In this document: piece by piece, positions 4,391-22,492 of the stretch
How the letters are laid out: each line of letters begins with the position of its first letter
How positions within the stretch are numbered: position 1 is the stretch's first letter
IMG/VR virus record: IMGVR_UViG_3300042934_001313
Coordinates: 1-24,965 of that record
Reading direction: 5' to 3' (one strand)
DNA length: 24,965 nt
Origin: a virus
Translations under genes and position numbers: made by a program
Notes under the pieces: generated by a model
The model's input: the letters and a program-made list of their open reading frames with translations, nothing else
Database searches by the model: none
What the model was told of the DNA's origin: nothing

Positions 4391-4617
4391 TGGCTGACTC
4401 AATGGATCTGGTACAGCAGCGCGTGCAGGAAGAGCTGGCGCGCAATCTGGCTAACGCTACTCACCGCCCGGCAGGGGCGAGTGAGTTTTTCTGCCTGTCG
4501 TGCGGTGAGGAAATCCCGGAGAAGCGCCGCCGCGCACTGCCGGGCGTTTGCCTCTGCGTGACCTGCAAAGAAATAAGTGAGCTGAAAAGCACGCATTACA
4601 AAGGTGCAGCGTTATGA
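4390..4617 (+). CDS. TraR/DksA-family zinc-finger protein
   Basis: A 75-aa protein with a helical N-terminus and a C4 zinc finger: Cys35-x2-Cys38, 17 residues, Cys56-x2-Cys59 (FFCLSCGEEIPEKRR...CLCVTC). It is a typical phage TraR-like protein. Relatives lack most of the DksA coiled coil and bind the RNA polymerase secondary channel, mimicking DksA with ppGpp to reprogramme host promoters. An extra Cys54 lies just before the second pair. It overlaps both the upstream gene (1 base) and the dam start (4 bases, ATGA). Confidence 0.88.
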   Translation: MADSMDLVQQRVQEELARNLANATHRPAGASEFFCLSCGEEIPEKRRRALPGVCLCVTCKEISELKSTHYKGAAL

Positions 4618-5414
4618 AAGCTATCCTTAAATGGGCTGGCAGCAAGTCCGGCCTGATGCCTGAACTGATTAAGCATCTGCCTGCCGGTGATCGTCTGGTT
4701 GAGCCGTTTGCCGGTTCATGTGCGGTCATGATGAATACGGATTACCCGGCCTATCTGGTGGCGGATGTTAATCCCGATCTGATCAACCTCTATCGTCAGG
4801 TTAAAGAGCATACGCGCCCGTTTATTGTCGTGGCGTTATCGCTCTTTAATCAGAACAAAACGGAAGAGAGTTATTATCAGGTCCGCGAAGACTTTAACTT
4901 CAACGCGGCGCTACCACTGCTGGAACGCGCTGCGCAATTCCTCTACCTGAACCGCCACGGCTACCGTGGCCTTTGCCGCTATAACAAGCGCGGCGAATTT
5001 AATAATCCTTACGGCCATTACAAACAGCCATATTTCCCGCTGGCTGAAATCGAAGCGTTTGCCCTGAAGGCACAACGCGCGACGTTTGAATGTCTGGGCT
5101 ACAGCAACACTCTGAGCATGGTCCGTGCCGGTGATGTCGTGTACTGCGATCCGCCGTATCACGGCACATTCACCGCATATCACACCGATGGGTTTAGCGA
5201 CGATGATCAGCACTCGCTGGCCTGCATCCTGCTGGGCATCTCTGAACGTAACCCGGTCATCGTTTCAAACAGCGACACCCTGTTTACCCGCAGTATCTTC
5301 CGAGAATTTGACCTGACAAAAGTCACTGCCGCCCGCTCTGTTGGCGTGGCTGCGGGTGAAGGCAAGCGCGCATCTGAAATCATCGCAGTGCGTCACATGA
5401 GTCTGGCGGTGTAA
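4614..5414 (+). CDS. dam: Phage DNA adenine methyltransferase (Dam-like)
   Basis: A 266-aa D12-class adenine-N6 methyltransferase. The AdoMet motif is [11 protein letters not shown] (about 28-38), preceded by [11 protein letters not shown] (the K-W-x-G-x-K opening of Dam), and the catalytic motif is DPPY at 179-182. GATC specificity is inferred from the family. In this phage group such enzymes protect viral DNA or affect replication timing. It overlaps the TraR-like gene by 4 bases (ATGA) and its stop codon (TAATG) overlaps the start of A by 1 base. Confidence 0.93.
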
Positions 5415-7783
5415 TGACTCAGGTTTTCGCATATCCCTGGAATGCCCCTAAAAAGGCAATCAATCCACAGCTGGACCCGGCGGAAGTTGCGCCGGTGTCC
5501 GCGCTTTCAAACCTGATCAGTCTTTATGCTGCAGATAACGAGCAGGAGCAGCTGCGCCGTGAGGCAATGAGTGATGAGGTTTGGGACCGCTACTTTTTCA
5601 ACGAGTCCCGCGATCCTGTCCAGCGTGAAATTGTGCAGGACAGAATTGTCAGCCGGGCAAAGATGGCCCGCGAACAGCAGCAACACAATCCCGATCTGGT
5701 TATCGTGGCCGATGTCAGCGCCCAGCCTTCGCACATCAGCAAGCCTCTCATGGAGCGCGTTAAGTTCTTTCATAATCTCGGCAGGCCGCAGGCTTATTCA
5801 CGTTACCTGCGCGAAACCATCCGGCCCTGCCTTGAGCGGCTGGCCCGCGTGCGCGAAAGCCAGATTTCAGCCTCCTTCCGGTTTATGGCCGGTCATGACG
5901 GGCTGGACGGCCTGCTGGCGTTGCCTGAAATGAACCAGAATCAGGTCAAGCGTTTATCTACGCTGGTCGCTGCGCACATGAGCATGTGTCTTGATAAGGC
6001 CAGCGGCCATCTGTTTGTCAGTGACGACGTGACGCCGGAGCAGGTCCGTCAGGCATGGGAGATTGTTGCAGCTGAAGCGATGCGCCTGGACGTAATCCCC
6101 CCGGCCTTTGAGCAGCTGCGCCGCAAAAAGCGCCGCCGCAAGCCCGTACCTTATGATCTGATCCCGCCCTCGCTGGCCCGTATGCTCTGCGCGGACTGGT
6201 GGTATCGCAAGTTATGGCAGCTACGTTGTGAATGGCGTGAAGAGCAGCTGCGTGCTGTCTGCCTGGTCAACAAAAAAGCGTCCCCCTACGTCAGCTTTGA
6301 AGCGGTAATCCATAAGCGTGAGCAGCGCCGGAAGTCTCTGGAGTTCTTCCGCTCACATGAGCTGGTAAGCAATGAAGGCGATACGCTGGATATGGAAGAC
6401 GTGGTGAATGCCAGCAACAGCAATCCGGCTCACCGCCGCAATGAAATGATGGCCTGCGTTAAAGGGCTGGAGCTTATCGCGGAAATGCGCGGCGACTGCG
6501 CCGTGTTTTACACCATCACCTGCCCGTCACGATTCCACGCAACGCTTAACAACGGCAGGCCCAATCCGAAATGGACCACGGCAACGGTACGCCAGAGCAG
6601 TGATTATCTGGTCGATACGTTTGCCGCCTTCCGCAAAGCCATGCATAAAACCGGTATGCGCTGGTATGGCGTGCGGGTTGCAGAGCCGCATCACGACGGC
6701 ACCGTACACTGGCACCTGCTGTGCTTCATGCGCAAAAAAGAGCGCCGTTCAGTCACCGCACTGCTGCGGAAATTCGCCATTCGCGAAGATCGCGAAGAGC
6801 TTGGCAGCAATACCGGGCCACGCTTTAAAGCTGAGCTGATTAACCCGCGCAAAGGTTCACCGACCAGTTATATCGCTAAATACGTCAGTAAAAATATTGA
6901 TGGCCGTGGCCTGTCTGATGAAATCAGTGCAGAAACAGGTAAATCACTGCGTGACAGCGCAGAGAACGTCGGGGCGTGGGCGTCACTTCATCGCGTTCAG
7001 CAGTTCCGCTTCTTTGGCATTCCGGGCCGTCAGGCTTACCGGGAACTGCGCCTGCTTGCCGGGCAGGCGCTGAGAAATCAGAGCGATAAAAAAGCAGGTG
7101 CGCCGGTGCTTGAAAACGCGCAGCTGGACGCCGTGCTGGCCGCTGCAGATGTGGGCTGCTTTGCCACCTACATCATGAAGCAGGGCGGCGTGCTGGTTCC
7201 ACGTAAACATCACATCGTCAGAACTGCTTACGAGCTTAACGACGAGCCAACCCCTTACGGCGATCACGGCACCCGCATTTATGGCATCTGGTCCCCGTTA
7301 GTAGCGGGCCGTATCTGCACGCACGCAACAAAGTGGAAGATGGTCCGTAAGGCCGTTGACGTTCAGGAGGCGACAGCCGACCAGGGCGCTAGCGCCCCTT
7401 GGACTCGTGGCAATAACTGTCCCCCTGATGAAAAACTGAACATTTCAGGGGGCATTCCGGTATCTGTTGAACCTATAGAGCCGGTTGAAACGCCTCTGTA
7501 TGGTCCGGCAGATTTCGACAACATGACCAGAAAACAGCGCCGGGAACTGCTGGCGCGTCTCCGGGTGGTGAAGCCGCGCCAGAAAAAAAGTTATAAGCAG
7601 GAAATTGACGACGATCAGCGGGCGCTTTTGGTTGCGGAGTTGCAGGTAAGAGGATTTACAGGTGAGGAAATGGAAATAAACCTGCTTCTGGCCGGTGGCA
7701 GTATCAATTCTGGCGCGGGCATGAGAATTTTTTACCGGAACGGGCGGCTGCAGGAAGACGATAAGTGGCGTCAATGGAACTGA
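5414..7783 (+). CDS. A: Replication initiation endonuclease gpA (rolling circle)
   Basis: A 789-aa homologue of P2 gpA (761 aa), the cis-acting HUH nickase that starts rolling-circle replication and stays covalently linked to the 5' end. The HUH motif is His432-Trp-His434 in [13 protein letters not shown]. The two catalytic tyrosines are Tyr486 and Tyr490 in [13 protein letters not shown], matching P2 Tyr450 and Tyr454. The basic stretch RRKKRRRK (about 236-243) may bind DNA. The C-terminal part is shared with P2 ([10 protein letters not shown] matching APRSPVNNC), and that segment encodes the origin. It is the last gene of the early operon. Confidence 0.97.
7384..7452 (+). other. ori: Candidate replication origin (gpA nick region) inside gene A
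   Basis: P2 ori lies within gene A, in the codons for APRSPVNNC. The matching codons here are 7394-7420 (APWTRGNNC), and the DNA keeps much of the P2 sequence, ending AAy-AAC-TGT. They are flanked by a perfect 14-bp palindrome GGGCGCTAGCGCCC (7384-7397) and an 8-bp inverted repeat CCCCCTGA (7421-7428)/TCAGGGGG (7445-7452), structure that coding needs do not explain. The exact nick position is not determined. Confidence 0.6.
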
Positions 7784-8372: not shown

Positions 8373-8464
8373 TTGCTACAGAACGTTTGGGATGATGATA
8401 GCTGGTCACGTTGAGAACTTCTGGCTCTTCAAGCACTACGAGATACTTACTGCTCATTGCCATG

Positions 8465-8480
8465 GCATTAGTTATAATGC
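8465..8480 (+). promoter_or_regulatory. Methyltransferase promoter -10 inside an inverted repeat
   Basis: A perfect TATAAT (8473-8478) lies 27 bases before the methyltransferase ATG. It sits inside the inverted repeat GCATTA-GTTA-TAATGC (8465-8480), next to the palindrome TGCCATGGCA (8458-8467). No good -35 is seen, so the promoter may be weak or depend on an activator. The repeat could be an operator for self-regulation, but no controller protein is coded nearby. Confidence 0.45.
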
Positions 8481-8505
8481 GTCCATGATTTTAGGGAGAC
8501 ATTCA

Positions 8506-9441
8506 ATGCCAACGGTAGTATCACTTTTTTCAGGTTGCGGCGGTTCAGATGCAGGTGTCATCAATGCTGGCTTTAACGTTTTGATGGCCAACGACATTCT
8601 GCCCTACGCACGTGATGTCTATCTTGCTAACCATCCTGAGACTGATTATGTTTTAGGCAGTGTTACTCAAATTGAACATTTCCCAAAAGCAGATTTGCTG
8701 GTCGGTTGCTATCCATGTCAAGGATTTAGTCAAGGGGGTGTAAGGCAAGCCGACAGAAAAATTAACACTCTTTATTTAGAATTTGCTCGCGCCCTAAACC
8801 ATATAAAACCTAAAGCATTTATCGTTGAAAATGTTTCAGGAATGGTGCGTAAGAATTTTGATCATTTATTGAAAGATCAAATACGCGTCTTTACTGAGGC
8901 AGGCTATAAAGTCCATTATCAAGTTCTTAATGCAATGGATTTCGGTGTACCTCAAGAGAGAAAACGCATATTCATAGTTGGAATAAAAAATAATTTGGGA
9001 GTGGAATTTAGCTTCCCTAAAGCAACACACGGTGTTGGAAATAAATCTTTCACTACAATTGGTGATGCTATAGGTCACATGCCTGAATGGCCTATAGGGG
9101 AATATTACGATTACGATTTTCATTGGTATTATATGTCTAGAAATCGTAGGCAGAATTGGGATCAGGTATCAAAAACTATAGTGGCTAATCCCCGCCATAT
9201 GCCCCTTCATCCAATCAGCCCATCTCTTGAGAAGGTCGGGCCTGATGAATGGAAGTTCACTGCAGATCTGCCGGCAAGACGTTTCAGTTTCAGAGAGGCG
9301 GCCGTTCTACAAGGCTTTAATGAACTATCATTCCCTCCTACAGAAAAGGGAACTATGAATATGAAATATACGGTTGTTGGTAATGCTGTACCGCCTCCAT
9401 TATTTGAGGCGGTAGCAAAGGCGTTACCAAATATTTGGTAG
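8506..9441 (+). CDS. DNA cytosine-5 methyltransferase (cargo island 1)
   Basis: A 311-aa C5 methyltransferase with motifs in canonical order: I SLFSGCGGSDAG (6-17), IV GCYPCQGFS with catalytic Cys71, VI ENV (108-110), VIII QERKR (150-154), IX RRFSFREAAVLQGF and X GNAVPPPL. The target-recognition part between VIII and IX is short (about 100 residues); the target site cannot be read from it. AGGGAG 7 bases before 8506 sets the start; an in-frame ATG at 8392 lacks a good site and overlaps old dinI sequence. The gene is AT-rich beside the GC-rich backbone, which suggests recent acquisition. It probably protects DNA against the convergent nuclease gene, whose stop codon is only 4 bases away. Confidence 0.94.
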   Translation: MPTVVSLFSGCGGSDAGVINAGFNVLMANDILPYARDVYLANHPETDYVLGSVTQIEHFPKADLLVGCYPCQGFSQGGVRQADRKINTLYLEFARALNHIKPKAFIVENVSGMVRKNFDHLLKDQIRVFTEAGYKVHYQVLNAMDFGVPQERKRIFIVGIKNNLGVEFSFPKATHGVGNKSFTTIGDAIGHMPEWPIGEYYDYDFHWYYMSRNRRQNWDQVSKTIVANPRHMPLHPISPSLEKVGPDEWKFTADLPARRFSFREAAVLQGFNELSFPPTEKGTMNMKYTVVGNAVPPPLFEAVAKALPNIW

Positions 9442-9445
9442 CTTA

Positions 9446-10372
9446 TTAACGGTAAGACATGCCAAATGTTTCGACCACGTAGGGCTGGAGAGGAAGATCG
9501 TTGATTATGTCATTCTCTCTAGCCAAATTTATAAGTCTTAACCTGTCAACAAAAACTGCATTACCTATATCTGCCTTATAGGCCCAATCCCCGTCCATCC
9601 AGCGTAGGTCCTGTGGCAGAAAATAATAAGTTGCCCATGGATGAGTCACTGGTAATCTAGAGCCAAGTTTCGCATACGATGCTTCAAGCTGCTTAGCAAC
9701 CCATTCCTTTTGTGAGCAACCACATTGAACAAAAGCAATAGGAATTGCATCTCTTTCATCACCCATTGGATGCCAGGCTATAATATCTAACCCCCCATCA
9801 CCATGATCACCAACTTTAAAGTCTCTTTCTTTGATGCCAACTGATGTGCAACGGATGTCACTTGCTATGGAGCGATATTTTTCAAAAAGTGACCCACGGT
9901 ATCTAGCTTCTTCACCACCGCCCGCCCAATTTGGAACTACTTGTGTGCCTCTTGGCATCAAAGAACTGAAAATAGGTAAACTAATAACCTCAAACGAACG
10001 GGTAATTTCTGATCTTCTTGCTCTAGGAACATACTTAATATTCGCACAAAGAAGTAGAGACAAATACATATGTTGGTTAGGATTTAGCTCATCTAAATTT
10101 TGGTCTAATACGATTATTTCATCTAGGTCATCACTAACTTTAAATGGGTAACTGTCTCCAAAAATCACCTGTCGTTGTATAACAAAGTCGATTGCTAAGC
10201 GCCACTTAGCCTGAGACTGCTCGCGTGTGAAAGTTTCAGGCTGATTGCGCATTACACTATCAAGTTCACCTCTATTAAAACGCTTGTCTGGGTGAACAAT
10301 AGCTCTAATCTCAATAAAATCCGCCCAAAAAAACTCATCATTTAGAGGTAAAGATTCAAGATTATTCAGCAT
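9446..10372 (-). CDS. PD-(D/E)XK-like restriction nuclease (cargo island 1)
   Basis: A 308-aa protein whose C-terminal half has a nuclease-like core: GDHGDGGLDIIAWHP (Asp192, Asp196) on one strand and IAFVQCGCSQKEW (Gln216-Cys217, Lys222) on the next. This is the D...QxK arrangement of Mrr-like PD-(D/E)XK nucleases, except that the usual lysine after Q-C is Gly218 and a lysine appears four residues later. The N-terminal about 150 residues (FFWADFIEIRAIVHPDKR at the start) are unrecognised and may bind partner or DNA. It follows the ParB-like gene by 2 bases (TGA-AT-ATG), so the two are coupled and probably act together. I infer DNA cleavage of unmethylated invader DNA; the family match is from motif alone. 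Confidence 0.72.
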   Translation of the reverse strand: MLNNLESLPLNDEFFWADFIEIRAIVHPDKRFNRGELDSVMRNQPETFTREQSQAKWRLAIDFVIQRQVIFGDSYPFKVSDDLDEIIVLDQNLDELNPNQHMYLSLLLCANIKYVPRARRSEITRSFEVISLPIFSSLMPRGTQVVPNWAGGGEEARYRGSLFEKYRSIASDIRCTSVGIKERDFKVGDHGDGGLDIIAWHPMGDERDAIPIAFVQCGCSQKEWVAKQLEASYAKLGSRLPVTHPWATYYFLPQDLRWMDGDWAYKADIGNAVFVDRLRLINLARENDIINDLPLQPYVVETFGMSYR

Positions 10373-10374
10373 AT

Positions 10375-11454
10375 TCAGTCGTCCTCACGGGCACTTCTAA
10401 TGTGAGTTCGGATTTTCTTAGCCATTTCAAAAAGCTGATTTGCCGACTCTTCATCATCGGACTCATATTTCTGTAGTTTAAGAAGCATATTCCATACAAC
10501 TCTTAAACGGGCGGACGCCATCTGCATAGCTTCTTCTAAAGCTTCTTGCTGACCGTTAGTGTAAAGATATGCCTGATCCATATCTCCTGTTTCTCTCAGA
10601 ACACTTACCGCATCATCGTTTTCAACAATCTTTGCAATATCTTTTATTCTGCGAGACTCTCTTATAATAGTTCTTCCTTGCTGATCTCTTACAAAACACC
10701 AAGCAAATAAATCCTTGAGGTTATCCTCTTCTATTTTTGGGGTGTCAAAGTCTCTCTTATCTTCAAGACCAAGCCATTCAGTTATAGATGTGTAACTTAA
10801 TGAGGTGGTAATATATGAGAATTCAACATCATTTTCATCCATCTTCAAGTTGAAAAATCTTTTCTCTTGCGCAGTTTCATACATTTTCAATGCGGTTAGT
10901 AGTGCACCGACATAATGAGGCTTGCTACCTATTTCACGAGCAAGATTTTTTAATATTTCTTCTTTTGGCGTGTTAGAATAAAATTCTTCACAAAGCTCTT
11001 TTAAATATTTTGCTTTAGAAAGTGAGTCCCATTCTTTGACGCCAGTAATGTGCCTATAACCTATATAGCGTAATACTTCTTCTCTTGAAGAATATACTAG
11101 ACATGGTAATTCATCGGGCTTATTAGTCGTATCGTTTTTTATATCTTCAACACTTTTGCTTTTTCTCGCAGGAGCATTTAGCTCACCATTCAAAAGCTTG
11201 ACGGCTGCTAGTCGTCTATTGCCCTCAGCAACTACTCGCCGGTCACCATCTTCAAAAACTAACAGTGGTTCACCAGGGAAGTAGCCCTGTTGACCAATTG
11301 ATAGCATCAAATCGTGAACGCTTTCGTCGTCTAACATTTCTTCGATAACAGCTGAGTCGCTACTGGCATCATTCAGCCTATAAAATCTGGGATTTTTAGG
11401 GTCAAAAGAGAGGATGCTAGTTTTGATGAACTCTATGTTTTTTGGCTGTGACAT
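10375..11454 (-). CDS. ParB/sulfiredoxin-fold protein (cargo island 1, NTP-binding regulator?)
   Basis: A 359-aa protein with an N-terminal ParB/Srx domain: NPR at 21-23, GQQGYFPGEPLLVFEDGDRR (54-73) and the signature VAEGNRRLAAVKLL (75-88), the EGNRR loop that binds nucleotide phosphates in this fold. Then REIGSKPHYVGALLTALKMY (about 167-186) resembles the helix-turn-helix after ParB N-domains. The C-terminus (about 290-359) is helical and charged. Chromosomal ParB partners and parS sites are absent. Proteins of this fold also occur as NTPase switches in defence systems such as DndB- and GmrSD-related ones. Coupled to the nuclease gene, it is likely the sensor or loader. RBS AAGGGA is 5 bases before the ATG. 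Confidence 0.78.
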   Translation of the reverse strand: MSQPKNIEFIKTSILSFDPKNPRFYRLNDASSDSAVIEEMLDDESVHDLMLSIGQQGYFPGEPLLVFEDGDRRVVAEGNRRLAAVKLLNGELNAPARKSKSVEDIKNDTTNKPDELPCLVYSSREEVLRYIGYRHITGVKEWDSLSKAKYLKELCEEFYSNTPKEEILKNLAREIGSKPHYVGALLTALKMYETAQEKRFFNLKMDENDVEFSYITTSLSYTSITEWLGLEDKRDFDTPKIEEDNLKDLFAWCFVRDQQGRTIIRESRRIKDIAKIVENDDAVSVLRETGDMDQAYLYTNGQQEALEEAMQMASARLRVVWNMLLKLQKYESDDEESANQLFEMAKKIRTHIRSAREDD

Positions 11455-11483
11455 GACATTCCCTTGTGAAGGATTTTGTTACC

Positions 11484-11513
11484 AGTTTAAGTCCATGTTT
11501 GGGCTTTTGTCAC
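11484..11513 (-). promoter_or_regulatory. Promoter of the ParB-like/nuclease operon
   Basis: On the minus strand GTGACA (11508-11513) is followed after 18 bp by TAAACT (11484-11489): five and four consensus bases. It lies about 30 bases before the ParB-like ATG and points at it. It is independent of the phage early and late promoters, so the cargo could be expressed in the lysogen. Confidence 0.5.
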
Positions 11514-11550
11514 TAAGAGCTAAGTCTCATGAAAGATTGCATGGCTATGC

Positions 11551-11652
11551 TGCATGAATACGCATGATCCCAGAAGGATCGTTTACCCTCTGGCCCGCCA
11601 GTACTGGCGGGCTTTTGTTGATGTCATGCAGGTGCATGAAAACCACTGCATA
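11551..11652. repeat. TGCAT-type repeats next to cos (candidate terminase-binding sites)
   Basis: TGCATGA (11551-11557), GCATGA (11562-11567), TGCATGAA (11633-11640) and TGCATA (11647-11652), with a further GCATGG at 11539-11544. P2 has similar TGCATGAA motifs just left of cos. They are candidates for recognition by the gpP/gpM terminase. The two nearest cos are 14 bases apart. Confidence 0.45.
11593..11616 (+). terminator. Rightward intrinsic terminator before cos
   Basis: A perfect 20-bp palindrome GCCCGCCAGT/ACTGGCGGGC (11593-11612) is followed by TTTT. No rightward gene ends just before it now. Without cargo island 1 it would end the A and SOS-module transcripts, so it is probably the ancestral end of the early region. 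Confidence 0.7.
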
Positions 11653-11825: not shown

Positions 11826-12884
11826 TCAGTCGGGGCGGCGGTCGTCTGTCAGGTCGAGAGTGTAAGGGGCGAAGCGTATAACTTCCTCACCCAGCCAGCT
11901 GTTCAGTTCTTCAAAGCGTTTTTGCAGTGGCATTAACTCGTTGCGCACAAACACCTTGCTGGCCTTTTCCACATCACCGAACCCACCCGTGTTGCTGGGG
12001 ATAATCCCCATCAGCTGCGGCGGCACACGATGCACGGTCAGCATGTCGTCGCGGCTCACGTTCTTGATGTTCAGAAACTCATCCTTTGCCGCCACCTCTG
12101 ACAGCGGGATGATCTGGATGCCATCCTTTTTCCCGTTCGGGCTGTACATAAACAGGTTACGGAAGTTGCCAGGACCCTTCGCGCTTTTCATGGCGCTGCG
12201 GATGTTGTCCACGTCCTGCTGGCTCTGCGCCGGGTCGGTCATGTACATGATGAAGCCCGCATGGCTGCCGTTCAGGTAGTACTTGCGGCGGAACAGCGTA
12301 GCCGACTCGTTCAGTAGCGCCGACGGGATGGCCGACAGATAGCCCGGCAGGCCGTAAATCTCCTGATTGATATCCGGCTCCATCAGGTGAAACACGCTGC
12401 CCTTCTCGAATTCATAAGGCTCCGTGCTGATGCCATAGTGCGCATACCAGTATGTCTCCAGGTCGAGTCCGCGCCGGGTGAACTTTGCCAGCGACGGCTC
12501 CAGCTTCAGCGCGTTACCGAGGCGGCTGGTCCGCTTCTCCAGGTAGGCATTACCGAAAATCAGGTAATCCAGCGCAAAGCGGCTGAACGCCTGCTGACTC
12601 AGCAGGCGGTGAGGGATAAAGGTACTTGCCAGAATATTGCACTTTACGCTGATAGGTGAGCTGTGATGCACGGCGGCGCGGAACGTGCGCGCCAGCCCGT
12701 CAACGCTCACGGGTGGTTCATACCAGCGATCATTAGCTATGCATTCCACGTAGTCCAGCAGTTCGCGACGGTCCAGCACCGGGATCGGGTCGCCAAAGGT
12801 AAACGCCTCCGACGCTGCCCCGCTGGTCATGTTATCTGGCTGCGGCACGGGCTGCGTGCGGGTGCGGTTCCTGCGTTTGCTCAT
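11826..12884 (-). CDS. Q: Phage portal protein gpQ
   Basis: A 352-aa portal protein like P2 gpQ (344 aa). It forms the dodecameric ring at the capsid vertex through which DNA enters. Matching segments include FLNIKNVSRDDMLTVHRVPP and LMGIIPSNTGGFGDVEKASK, then LMPLQKRFEELNSWLGEEVI near the end, and FRRKYYLNGSHAGFIMYMTD in the middle. The N-terminus is a basic, disordered RNRTRTQP segment. Its start codon overlaps the stop codon of P by one base, giving a P-Q operon read toward cos and ended by the terminator at 11768-11805. Confidence 0.96.
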   Translation of the reverse strand: MSKRRNRTRTQPVPQPDNMTSGAASEAFTFGDPIPVLDRRELLDYVECIANDRWYEPPVSVDGLARTFRAAVHHSSPISVKCNILASTFIPHRLLSQQAFSRFALDYLIFGNAYLEKRTSRLGNALKLEPSLAKFTRRGLDLETYWYAHYGISTEPYEFEKGSVFHLMEPDINQEIYGLPGYLSAIPSALLNESATLFRRKYYLNGSHAGFIMYMTDPAQSQQDVDNIRSAMKSAKGPGNFRNLFMYSPNGKKDGIQIIPLSEVAAKDEFLNIKNVSRDDMLTVHRVPPQLMGIIPSNTGGFGDVEKASKVFVRNELMPLQKRFEELNSWLGEEVIRFAPYTLDLTDDRRPD

Positions 12885-19551: not shown

Positions 19552-19945
19552 GTCGGTCCCCTACGTGGCCAACAACCCGGATCGCCTGCACCTGTTCGTG
19601 GACAGCGGCCAGCTGATTGCCACGTCAGCCGCGTCCCTGTCGTGGGAGTACCGCTACACGCTGAACGTGGTGATCACCGACTTCACCGGCGATCAGAATT
19701 TGCTGATGGCACCGGTGCTTTTGTGGCTGCGGGAAAACCAGCCCGACGCGCTGCAGAACAGTGAGGCGCGTGAAAGGCTGTTTTCGTTTGAGGTCGATAT
19801 TCTGGCGAATGACCGCTGTGACATCAGCATGGACCTGAAGCTGACCGAGCGCGTGATAGCCACCATTGAGGACGGCAAAGCACGCATTGAGGCTATGCCG
19901 GAACCTGAAGTACCGGAGGAATTCTGGACGGTGAAGCATGGCTGA
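19514..19945 (+). CDS. R: Tail completion protein gpR
   Basis: A 143-aa homologue of P2 gpR (155 aa), needed for tail completion. Matches: MNKPQSLRSALNKSVPYVANNP, cut here as MNKPQSLRSALNK, then RLHLFVDSGQLIATSAASLS, YTLNVVITDFTGD and WLRENQPD. The C-terminus (EVPEEFWTVKHG) is shorter than in P2. The start lies inside lysC (38-base overlap) and the end overlaps S by 8 bases, so all are coupled. Confidence 0.94.
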   Translation: MNKPQSLRSALNKSVPYVANNPDRLHLFVDSGQLIATSAASLSWEYRYTLNVVITDFTGDQNLLMAPVLLWLRENQPDALQNSEARERLFSFEVDILANDRCDISMDLKLTERVIATIEDGKARIEAMPEPEVPEEFWTVKHG

Positions 19946-20381
19946 ACTGCATGAAGTGGATGCCTGGCTGGCTGCGCTTCTCTCACAGCTGGAACCGACA
20001 GCCCGGAAAAAGATGCTGCGCGAGGTGGCGCGCGACGTGCGCCGCATTCAGCAGGCAAACATCACAGCACAACGTTCCCCGGACGGCACCGCATGGGAGC
20101 CGCGCCGCGTCAGCGCCCGCAGCAAAAAAGGCCGCATCCGTCGCGGCATGTTTGCGAAGCTGAAAACTACAAAGTATCTAAAGGCAAAGACAGACGCAGA
20201 CGCTGCTGAGGTTGCCTTTATTCCGGGGGTGCAGAAGTTGGCCCGCGTTCACCACTACGGCCTGCGGGACCGGGTAAGCCGTCGCGGCCCGATGGTAAAA
20301 TATGCTGAACGTCTGCTGCTGGGGGTAAATACAGACGTTAGGAAAAAAATCGAGCATATACTAATGAGTTGGCTAGATTGA
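19938..20381 (+). CDS. S: Tail completion protein gpS
   Basis: A 147-aa protein like P2 gpS (150 aa). Matching parts are LAALLSQLEPTARKKMLREV, QRSPDGTAWEPR, SKKGRIRRGMFAKLKTTKYL and LARVHHYGLRDR. It acts with gpR at the head-proximal end of the tail. It is the last gene of the O-S operon and is followed within 20 bases by a hairpin terminator, after which cargo island 2 begins on the other strand. Confidence 0.94.
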   Translation: MAELHEVDAWLAALLSQLEPTARKKMLREVARDVRRIQQANITAQRSPDGTAWEPRRVSARSKKGRIRRGMFAKLKTTKYLKAKTDADAAEVAFIPGVQKLARVHHYGLRDRVSRRGPMVKYAERLLLGVNTDVRKKIEHILMSWLD

Positions 20382-20428: not shown

Positions 20429-20968
20429 TTATTCAGCTTCTTTTTTTGAGTGCTTTCTTAATATAATATTAGACCAGTCTTCAAGGCTTCTATCATCGAT
20501 GCTCTTTGAAGGTGTATCAGACAAAAGCATCAAGACTTCACCATGAAGACTTTTTAATTTATCTATACTTAGGGACTCACAGTATAAACAAAATGAATTA
20601 ACTAATCTTTGACGATTTTTTTTGTCCAATAGCTCTGGGTTTATGTAATTCTGATTGAATAGAAATAACTTAACGTCACTTATGCCTTGAAGGTAATGCT
20701 TATCACTCAGAACGGATTTGATTTCTTTTATTAAATCCATTTTAGGTTGATGGTCTTTTTTCACACTGTTAGCACTTGCTCTATATTCTCTTCCTTTAGT
20801 CGGCCCAAGTTTTTTTTGGAAATCAGTCGCATCAGATAAAGAATTGACGAAATTTAGATCTTTTAGCTTATCCAAAGAATCGATGAAATCTTTTTCGCCA
20901 TACTTAGCAATGAGTGAAAAAATCTCAGCCAGTATAGTATAATATCTTTTTTCTTTGGTTTCACTCAT
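20429..20968 (-). CDS. 179-aa protein of unknown function, partner of the ParA-like ATPase (cargo island 2)
   Basis: I do not recognise this protein. It is AT-rich in sequence, lysine-rich and largely helical: YYTILAEIFSLIAKYGEKDF, FQKKLGPTKGREYRASANSV, DLIKEIKSVLSDKHYLQGIS and LINPELLD-like NYINPELLDKKNRQR. It has no membrane segment, signal peptide or obvious catalytic motif. It starts 1 base after the ParA-like stop codon with AGGG about 8 bases before its ATG, so it forms a two-gene operon. By position it could be the effector or adaptor of the ATPase. It is not a ParB: I see no ParB signature or helix-turn-helix. Confidence 0.7.
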   Translation of the reverse strand: MSETKEKRYYTILAEIFSLIAKYGEKDFIDSLDKLKDLNFVNSLSDATDFQKKLGPTKGREYRASANSVKKDHQPKMDLIKEIKSVLSDKHYLQGISDVKLFLFNQNYINPELLDKKNRQRLVNSFCLYCESLSIDKLKSLHGEVLMLLSDTPSKSIDDRSLEDWSNIILRKHSKKEAE

Positions 20969-20969
20969 A

Positions 20970-21815
20970 TTAAAGCCCTATTTTTTTTGCGAACTCATTA
21001 GCAAACTTTCTGAAATTAGCAGCTGAAGTGGACCTTGCATATGAAGTTCTAAAGATTGGCTTACCTTCTCTAGCACCTTTCGGGTATGATTTTGAATAAA
21101 GTATCTCAGAATCAAAGACATTCCAGCCATTTAATGATGCTAATTTTTTTACACTGGTTTTGGATTTCAATTCTTCAGGTTCATAACCTGAGCATGCATT
21201 AAACACAATCCCAGCCAATTGAAGCTTGGAGTCATCATGTTCACTTAAGAAATCATTCATTGAATTTACTAATAATGGCAAACCTATTGTAGACAAATAT
21301 TCAGGCTTAACAGGCACTAAAATATAATCACTAGCCAGATAAGCGGCTGTCGTTAGTATTGACTCAGTAGGTGCACAGTCTATTATTATAATATCGTACT
21401 TGTCCTCTACTTTTTTCAAAGCCTTTTTAAGTAATTCTACTTTTTGATTTGGGCTTTTAAGCGAAAGTGCAAGCTCGAGTCTGGAAGGCAATAGATCAAT
21501 ATATTTACCAGAAGTAAATGTTACCGCTCTCATTATCGCATCGGCTGTTTCAATTTTTTTTGGTTTACCTAAAGGAGTGCGGGTGTGCTGTTCAAATATT
21601 TCCCAGACGGTTGGCTTCCCTCCATCCAAAATATTCTCTTGGTATTTTTGAGTTCCTACCAAGTATTGACTTGAATTAAACTGGGGGTCTAAATCAACAA
21701 CTAAAACATTTTTGTTCCAATTATTATAACATGCATAATGCCAAGCTAAATTAATAGTAAGAGTAGACTTACCAACTCCACCCTTCATATTTATCAAAGA
21801 GATAACCTTCGCCAT
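20970..21815 (-). CDS. ParA/MinD-type ATPase (cargo island 2)
   Basis: A 281-aa deviant Walker ATPase. Motifs: KGGVGKST at 11-18 with signature Lys11 and Lys16, A' VVDLDPQFNSSQYL (Asp41, Asp43) and Walker B IIIIDCAPTES (Asp146). It has no N-terminal helix-turn-helix, as in small ParAs. Such ATPases form ATP-dependent dimers on DNA or membrane and position a partner. No ParB or parS-like repeat lies next to it, and a chromosomally integrated prophage has no need of partition. The ATG at 21815 is chosen for AAGGA just before it and a standard ParA N-terminus; the frame is open to 21893. The start region faces the V promoter. Confidence 0.85.
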   Translation of the reverse strand: MAKVISLINMKGGVGKSTLTINLAWHYACYNNWNKNVLVVDLDPQFNSSQYLVGTQKYQENILDGGKPTVWEIFEQHTRTPLGKPKKIETADAIMRAVTFTSGKYIDLLPSRLELALSLKSPNQKVELLKKALKKVEDKYDIIIIDCAPTESILTTAAYLASDYILVPVKPEYLSTIGLPLLVNSMNDFLSEHDDSKLQLAGIVFNACSGYEPEELKSKTSVKKLASLNGWNVFDSEILYSKSYPKGAREGKPIFRTSYARSTSAANFRKFANEFAKKIGL

Positions 21816-21848
21816 AGTTTGTTTCCTTACAGAGATATAGTCAATGAT

Positions 21849-21866
21849 TGTGTGATTAGCTGCACA
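21849..21866. promoter_or_regulatory. Ogr/Delta-type late activator site before V
   Basis: TGT (21849-21851), 12 bases, ACA (21864-21866), inside TTGTG...GCACAA, the same form as the P-O site. It should activate the V-H tail operon. Its centre is only about 56 bases from the V ATG, so the mRNA would start within a few bases of that codon. It also lies just upstream of the ParA-like gene on the other strand. Confidence 0.6.
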
Positions 21867-21913
21867 AGGCAGCATCATCGATTTTATTGTCAATGTCCAA
21901 TAGATTTTCAGTA

Positions 21914-22492
21914 ATGAATATACAACTTAATGAAATCATGCGCCTCATCACCAACCTGATCCGCACCGGCATAGTTTTTGAAGTGGACCCGGTGAACTGG
22001 CTGTGCCGGGTGAAAACGGGCGATCTCGAAACCAACTGGATTAACTGGCTCACCCTGCGTGCCGGGAGCACCCGCACGTGGTGGAAACCCACCGTCGGGG
22101 AGCAGGTTGTGCTGCTGAGCCTGGGCGGCAACCTTGAAACCGCCTTTGCGCTGCCCGCCATTTATTCCGAAGCCTTCCCGCCGCCCGACTATTCGGACGA
22201 CGGCACCACCACCGTTTTTAAGGACGGCGGCTGGTTTCAGTACGAGCCGGAAACCGGCCAGCTGCTGATCAAAAACATCAAAAGCGTGCGCATTGAAGCG
22301 GCGGACGGCATTCAGCTGATCACCGATGCGCTGGGGATAGAGGCCAGCCAGACACGGATCAACGGTGATACCACGATGAACGGCGATGTGACACACGGCG
22401 GCGGTTCAATGAGTTCTAACGGCGTGATTGCTGATAAGCACTTACACGACAAAGTTAAGAGTGGCGGCGATATGTCAGGAGGCCCGCAATGA
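21914..22492 (+). CDS. V: Baseplate spike protein gpV
   Basis: A 192-aa homologue of P2 gpV (211 aa), the trimeric spike at the tail tip that pierces the outer membrane. The OB-fold part has LIRTGIVFEVD, WINWLTLRAGSTRTWWKPTV and GEQVVLLSLGGNLETAFALP. The beta-helix follows (about 110-170). The tip has HGGGSMSSNG and DKHLHDKV, whose His-x-His is the iron-binding apex motif. The start is uncertain: the ATG at 21914 fits the P2 N-terminus, but no Shine-Dalgarno is seen there or at the in-frame ATG at 21887. Confidence 0.94.
   Translation: MNIQLNEIMRLITNLIRTGIVFEVDPVNWLCRVKTGDLETNWINWLTLRAGSTRTWWKPTVGEQVVLLSLGGNLETAFALPAIYSEAFPPPDYSDDGTTTVFKDGGWFQYEPETGQLLIKNIKSVRIEAADGIQLITDALGIEASQTRINGDTTMNGDVTHGGGSMSSNGVIADKHLHDKVKSGGDMSGGPQ

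What the first reader, a model, noticed from the sequence alone, without database searches (positions are those of the whole stretch)
8465..11513. Possible new defence system: C5 methyltransferase + atypical PD-(D/E)XK nuclease + ParB/Srx-fold protein
Three AT-rich genes form an island in the A-cos interval, where P2 carries the phage-exclusion genes tin and old. The methyltransferase has all C5 motifs. The other two are coupled (2-bp gap): a nuclease-like protein (GGLD...VQCG...K) and a protein with a ParB-type NPR/EGNRR nucleotide-binding fold. Seen: motifs, coupling, position and base composition. Known: ParB/Srx-fold and related NTPases act as switches in some defence and modification systems, and this phage site is a cargo hotspot. 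Inferred: a restriction-modification system whose nuclease is controlled by CTP or ATP through the ParB-like protein rather than by a standard helicase motor. I do not recognise it as a named type.
Basis: partly seen in the sequence, partly recalled or inferred. Interest (0 to 1): 0.85.

Follow-up and report, generated by a model that had tools for sequence, protein, structure and literature searches.

The report
ParB-linked phage-borne restriction-modification cassette
A P2-like phage carries a three-gene cassette, a DNA-marking enzyme plus an inseparable pair made of a cutting enzyme and a ParB-like switch protein, that looks like a widespread but apparently undescribed kind of DNA restriction system against competing phages.

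Summary
In the A-to-portal cargo site of a P2-like phage lie a C5 methyltransferase (8506-9441 +) and, convergent to it, two coupled genes: a nuclease-like protein "NU" (9446-10372 -) and a ParB/Srx protein "PB" (10375-11454 -). The same triad is in phages WPhi (orf98/orf96/mth) and 12474III. NU models as a restriction-endonuclease fold (closest MspJI); its catalytic lysine has moved to K227, shown by near-perfect alternation with the usual QxK lysine. PB models as ParB/Noc. Across 58 families PB is always followed by NU, and 53 have a DNA methyltransferase next door: C5 in 36, D12 adenine in 14, N6/N4 in 3. PB and NU co-evolve (r=0.93); the methyltransferase is exchanged, but within its class. 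In 5,426 E. coli genomes one methyltransferase occurs 139 times, always with one of two very different PB-NU pairs. No Pfam, NCBIfam or PADLOC model hits NU; no paper found describes the triad. The nearest named system is PD-lambda-5 (ParB protein plus D12 methyltransferase, without this nuclease). Best reading: a restriction-modification system with a two-subunit ParB/PD-(D/E)XK effector. Control by CTP/ATP is untested.

The parts
8506..9441 (+). C5 cytosine DNA methyltransferase (M.HaeIII type, predicted GGCC); longest ORF from 8392
   Evidence: PF00145 4.5e-64; full-length match incl. target-recognition region to M.HaeIII 1dct 6e-46; TRD block SRNRRxxWxxxSKTIVANxRHMPLHP shared by most partners
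9446..10372 (-). NU: restriction-endonuclease-fold subunit, D196 / Q216 / K227 (migrated lysine), E128 in a core helix; N-terminal helical domain
   Evidence: phrog_3984 1.8e-111 only; AF2 pLDDT 89.2; Foldseek MspJI prob 0.98-0.99, BsaWI 0.85; profile-vs-PDB best hit MspJI over GDGGxD...Q; residue survey
10375..11454 (-). PB: ParB/Srx-fold protein (NPR, EGNRR) with HTH and C-terminal helical hairpin
   Evidence: phrog_3694 3.7e-136; PADLOC PD-Lambda-5_A over residues 10-168 only, 1e-22; AF2 pLDDT 86.8; Foldseek ParB-CDP 6sdk 6e-6, Noc, Spo0J, Srx
10373..10374 (-). 2-nt gap coupling PB to NU (one operon)
   Evidence: PB-NU adjacency kept in every family not cut by a contig end

Best explanation
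A phage-borne restriction-modification cassette with a two-subunit effector. The C5 methyltransferase marks self DNA (predicted GGCC). PB, a ParB/Srx-type DNA- and probably nucleotide-binding protein, and NU, a PD-(D/E)XK nuclease with a migrated catalytic lysine, act as one complex: PB recognises or loads on DNA lacking the mark and directs or licenses NU to cut it, so that a lysogen destroys incoming unmethylated phage DNA. Shown here: gene identities, predicted folds, catalytic residue pattern, obligate PB-NU pairing, linkage to methyltransferases and its match to methylation class. Inferred: PB and NU form a complex, methylation protects from them, and the target is phage DNA. Speculative: a CTP/ATP switch or sliding clamp as the trigger.
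For: Pairing: PB is followed by NU in every family not cut by a contig end. PB-NU identity matrices correlate at r=0.93, against 0.42 for PB-methyltransferase. Linkage: 53 of 58 families have a methyltransferase within 2.2 kb (C5 36, D12 14, N6N4 3). Class match: one branch (97% SH-aLRT) separates C5-linked from N6/N4-linked pairs, 3 changes among classes, although methyltransferases are swapped within the C5 class. E. coli: the methyltransferase is in 139 of 5,426 genomes, 103 with the WPhi pair and 36 with the 12474III pair; the pairs are only 21-32% identical, the methyltransferases 98%. Active nuclease: of 97 distinct NU sequences all keep D196; 92 have K227 without K218, 3 K218 without K227, 1 both, 1 K227 with Q216 lost; none lacks both lysines. 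Folds. Setting: gpA-portal hotspot; D12 versions sit there too.
Against: No activity data. Foldseek for NU is E 3e-3 with global TM about 0.3, so only the core is matched. In one plasmid (L093) no methyltransferase is seen within about 7 kb, and Z1-linked loci (L091, L092) lack an obvious one. MspJI, the nearest relative, is a modification-dependent enzyme, which could point the other way. The methyltransferase-class pattern rests on few switches and could partly be common descent. Some methyltransferase calls rest on BLAST to seeds, not on Pfam.
Confidence: 0.62

Rival explanations
1. Guard or abortive system: the methyltransferase mark keeps PB-NU silent, and loss of the mark (phage antirestriction, DNA turnover) releases NU, which destroys host and phage DNA and kills the cell.
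For: PD-lambda-5, the closest named system with the same ParB N-domain and a methyltransferase partner, is described by its discoverers as a compacted RM+Abi system (PMC9519451). It would explain why the methyltransferase never appears without a pair, and the pair never without it, in E. coli.
Against: The effector here is a DNA-cutting fold rather than the PD-lambda-5 C-terminal domain, to which NU shows no similarity. The pattern is equally that of plain restriction-modification.
Confidence: 0.18
2. Modification-licensed effector as in SspE or type IV systems: PB-NU needs the methylated state, or reads a foreign modification, to become active, and cuts DNA that is differently modified.
For: ParB/Srx-fold proteins are NTP-driven restriction effectors in modification-linked systems such as GmrSD (PMC12839542) and SspE. 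NU's nearest nuclease is the 5mC-dependent MspJI.
Against: An enzyme cutting 5mC would attack its own methylated host. The profile match to MspJI covers the nuclease motif only, not its N-terminal modified-base domain. PB-NU also partners with adenine methyltransferases.
Confidence: 0.1
3. NU alone is the restriction enzyme and PB is a transcriptional regulator of the operon (a controller-protein analogue).
For: PB has a helix-turn-helix after the ParB domain and is the first gene of the operon. Many type II systems use controller proteins.
Against: PB and NU co-evolve tightly (r=0.93) and are never separated in intact loci, more than a regulator needs. No system-specific repeat was found upstream of PB: the TGCAT repeats are also next to cos in P2, which lacks the cassette.
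Confidence: 0.07
4. Not defence: the methyltransferase protects the phage from host restriction and PB-NU is a phage partition or DNA-processing function.
For: ParB-like annotation; phages often carry protective methyltransferases.
Against: The same pair is found in bacterial chromosomes beside lepA and sulfate-permease genes (L104, L102) and inside a type I restriction operon (L088). There is no ParA beside it. It sits in a site known for defence cargo.
Confidence: 0.03

Closest known systems
PD-lambda-5 (Vassallo et al. 2022, PMC9519451; PADLOC PD-Lambda-5_A/_B)
   Same: First protein has the same ParB N-domain with NPR and EGNRR; second gene is a D12 DNA methyltransferase; validated against phages; described as a compacted prophage version of RM+Abi.
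   Different: Two genes, no NU homologue; its ParB protein carries a different C-terminal half; methyltransferase is D12, here C5. PB matches the PD-Lambda-5_A models over residues 10-168 only.
Phage WPhi orf98/orf96/mth and 12474III gp04-gp06 (annotated as unknown)
   Same: Same three genes, order, orientation and phage site.
   Different: 54-67% (WPhi) or 27-29% (12474III) identical in NU and PB; no function recorded.
Type II restriction-modification (M.HaeIII-like)
   Same: A M.HaeIII-type methyltransferase next to a restriction-fold nuclease.
   Different: The nuclease matches no PADLOC model and is obligately paired with a ParB-fold protein.
MspJI
   Same: Closest nuclease domain by sequence profile and by fold.
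   Different: QxK lysine replaced by G/A with K227 instead; no standalone modified-base domain recognised; paired with a methyltransferase and PB.
SspE / GmrSD (ParB/Srx-fold DUF262 with HNH)
   Same: ParB/Srx NTPase fold tied to a nuclease in modification-linked defence (general knowledge; PMC12839542).
   Different: Those carry HNH nucleases; here separate subunits with PD-(D/E)XK and a ParB/Spo0J-type fold. No DUF262 or HNH match.

Membership tests
Restriction-modification (type II-like) | DNA methyltransferase with intact family motifs | tested here: met
   PF00145 4.5e-64; M.HaeIII full-length alignment
Restriction-modification (type II-like) | Linked nuclease of a restriction fold | tested here: met
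   AF2 + Foldseek to MspJI/BsaWI; D/Q/K pattern. Fold and residues only, no activity
Restriction-modification (type II-like) | Nuclease and methyltransferase act on the same site; methylation protects | not testable with these tools
   Needs plating and digestion assays
Type I/III restriction | SF2 helicase motor subunit in the cassette | tested here: not met
   No helicase in the window cassette; L088 has one only because the pair sits inside a type I operon
PD-lambda-5 | PD-Lambda-5_A over its full length | tested here: not met
   PB matches over residues 10-168 against 440-500-position models
PD-lambda-5 | PD-Lambda-5_B D12 methyltransferase | tested here: not met
   Window methyltransferase is C5; B in L214 is D12
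Druantia type II | DruM methyltransferase together with the other Dru proteins | tested here: not met
   DruM2 model matches at 2e-109, but NU has no PADLOC hit and PB hits no Dru model
GmrSD / SspE type IV-like | DUF262 plus HNH | tested here: not met
   No such Pfam match for NU or PB
ParB partition protein | ParB nucleotide-binding fold plus HTH | tested here: met
   Foldseek and profile alignment
ParB partition protein | Adjacent parA / parS partition locus | tested here: not met
   Neighbours are NU and a methyltransferase; the ParA-like gene at 20970-21893 is 9 kb away
ParB CTP/NTP switch | Binding and hydrolysis of CTP or ATP | not testable with these tools
   NPR and EGNRR invariant and aligned to the ParB GERR box; ligand cannot be told

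The most novel reading that the evidence does not exclude
A new mechanistic type of restriction-modification: PB is a nucleotide-switched ParB-style DNA clamp that loads at unmethylated sites and activates the NU nuclease, replacing the helicase motor of type I/III enzymes; together with PD-lambda-5 it would define a family of ParB-gated, methyltransferase-linked defences with interchangeable effectors and interchangeable modification chemistry.
Probability: 0.28. Interest if true: 0.85.

Novelty: new variant of a known kind. Interest (0 to 1): 0.64.

Why it matters
If true, a defence cassette found in 2.6% of complete E. coli genomes (two families) and in roughly 1% of genomes sampled around two bacterial seeds has been overlooked because two of its three proteins match no curated family outside PHROGs. 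It would add a ParB/Srx-coupled nuclease to the restriction enzymes, link the validated but unexplained PD-lambda-5 to a wider family, and give a direct test of how ParB-type switches read DNA methylation. Its parts swap the modification chemistry (5mC or amino-methylation) while keeping the effector, which is useful for asking how an effector is matched to its mark.

Tried and rejected
Idea that ATGCA/TGCAT repeats upstream of PB are a PB operator: rejected, phage P2 with old/tin has 5 copies beside cosR. Idea that PDC-M38A is a PB-NU fusion: rejected, its second half (positions about 370-715) behaves like a common ATPase-type domain, ringing in most genomes. Idea that PD-Lambda-5_A carries a fused NU: rejected, no similarity. 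No fused PB-NU protein found. GGCC is mildly under-represented in the window (121 observed, 145 expected): not informative. Promoter and terminator scans gave no more than chance. Literature searches found no description of the triad; the library holds open-access papers only, and REBASE could not be searched.

Full report
Observation. The window is a fragment of a P2-like phage held as a virus record. Between the replication gene A (5414-7783) and the portal-like gene (11826-12884) lies an island of 37-44% GC between flanks of 55-60%. It holds three genes: a C5 methyltransferase on the plus strand (ORF 8392-9441, probable start 8506) and, convergent to it with 4 nt between the stops, NU (9446-10372) and PB (10375-11454) on the minus strand, 2 nt apart.

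What the genes are. The methyltransferase matches PF00145 and aligns end to end with M.HaeIII, including the target-recognition region. The block SRNRRxxWxxxSKTIVANxRHMPLHP is shared by most partners of the family; M.HaeIII arginines 225, 227 and 243, which I recall as the GG contacts, fall in it, so GGCC is the predicted target (inference). NU matches no Pfam, NCBIfam or PADLOC model and only PHROG 3984 and, weakly, PHROG 14650, both of unknown function. Its AlphaFold model is confident (pLDDT 89.2) and Foldseek puts restriction enzymes first: MspJI (probability 0.98-0.99), BsaWI (0.85), then weaker SgrAI and FokI. A profile of the family, searched by sequence alone, also ranks MspJI first, over GDGGxD...Q (E 0.088). 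PB matches PHROG 3694, and the PADLOC PD-Lambda-5_A models over its first 168 residues only; its model (pLDDT 86.8) matches CDP-bound ParB, Noc, Spo0J and sulfiredoxin.

Catalytic residues. NU lacks the QxK lysine of the MspJI type: it has QCG. Across 97 distinct NU sequences D196 is kept in all. 92 have K227, nine residues downstream of the lost lysine position (218), and no lysine at 218; three have the canonical K218 and no K227; one has both; one keeps K227 but has lost Q216. No sequence lacks both. The three canonical ones and the one with both belong to one clade, all with a D12 methyltransferase gene upstream. This alternation is what a migrated catalytic lysine leaves behind and argues that NU is an active nuclease. 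It is an inference from sequences, not an assay.

Linkage. Homologues were collected from viral contigs, genomes, phage and plasmid records. PB is followed directly by NU in every family whose contig continues (in the L091 group the script's ORF choice hid NU, which searches show). After reduction to 58 families (75% identity), 53 have a DNA methyltransferase within 2.2 kb: C5 in 36, D12 adenine in 14, N6/N4 in 3; Pfam confirms examples of each class. The five others are a contig end (L174), a locus whose C5 gene is 3.5 kb away (L085/L090), two pairs in one fragment beside a Z1 gene (L004), and a Persicobacter plasmid (L093). Some loci are plainly bacterial: beside lepA (L104), beside a sulfate permease (L102), and inside a type I operon HsdM-HsdS-D12-PB-NU-AlbA/Fic-HsdR (L088). 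The pair was found in 3 of 369, 4 of 395, 5 of 398 and 2 of 296 sampled genomes (each count includes the seed genome, and the samples overlap).

Evolution. Within the C5 class PB and NU identity matrices correlate at r=0.93, PB and methyltransferase at 0.42. WPhi and 12474III methyltransferases are 98% identical while their PB are 32% and NU 21%; conversely L128 and L144 have PB-NU close to those of their neighbours but a different C5 methyltransferase. In 5,426 complete E. coli genomes that methyltransferase occurs in 139, always with the WPhi pair (103) or the 12474III pair (36), and the pairs occur in 103 and 36 genomes, never without it. On the tree of PB+NU one branch (97% SH-aLRT) separates C5-linked from amino-methyltransferase-linked pairs, with 3 changes of class in all. 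So methyltransferases are exchanged, but within a chemistry: the pair seems matched to the kind of mark. Few switches underlie this, so common descent is a partial alternative.

Mechanism. The simplest account is restriction-modification: the methyltransferase protects self, and PB and NU together cut unmarked DNA. Complex formation, protection and phage targeting are inferred. That PB uses CTP or ATP as a switch is possible, since NPR and EGNRR are invariant and align with the ParB GERR box, but nothing here tests it. A guard or abortive mode is the main rival because PD-lambda-5 is described as RM+Abi.

Known or new. PD-lambda-5 was examined in a genome copy: its A protein has the same ParB N-domain and a different C-terminal half with no similarity to NU, and its B protein is a D12 methyltransferase. 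The window system fails both defining tests for PD-lambda-5 but shares its logic. It also fails Druantia II, GmrSD/SspE and partition-locus tests. The triad itself is visible in the deposited WPhi genome, but without a function; the searches made found no paper on it. I therefore call it a new variant of a known kind: a restriction-modification system with an unrecorded ParB/PD-(D/E)XK effector pair, related to PD-lambda-5.

Noticed in passing
window 20429-21893 (-): A second AT-rich island (32-37% GC) between tail gene S (19938-20381) and baseplate V (21887-22492): a ParA-like ATPase (AAA_31, 3e-37) and a 179-aa protein with no Pfam family, 1 nt apart; possibly another cargo or defence module.
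   Followed up: partly
window 4614-5414 (+): A D12 (Dam-like) adenine methyltransferase just upstream of gene A.
   Followed up: no
window 11540-11650: Array of ATGCA/TGCAT repeats between the presumed cos region and PB; also beside cosR in P2 without the cassette, so a phage feature.
   Followed up: yes
L088:2557-14468: PB-NU inserted in a type I restriction operon together with a D12 methyltransferase and an AlbA/Fic-like protein.
   Followed up: partly
L041, L004, L091, L092: PB-NU next to Z1-domain genes (in L041 also Vsr and a C5 methyltransferase): a possible larger assembly.
   Followed up: partly
PADLOC PDC-M38A (PDLC04607): A candidate defence protein whose first half resembles PB and whose second half behaves like a common ATPase-type domain: perhaps a further effector type on the same ParB sensor.
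   Followed up: partly
L078:6001-8142 and L146 (contig IMGVR_UViG_2945748529_000005): NU is split into two pieces about 0.9 kb apart in an otherwise intact triad, as if interrupted by an insertion.
   Followed up: no
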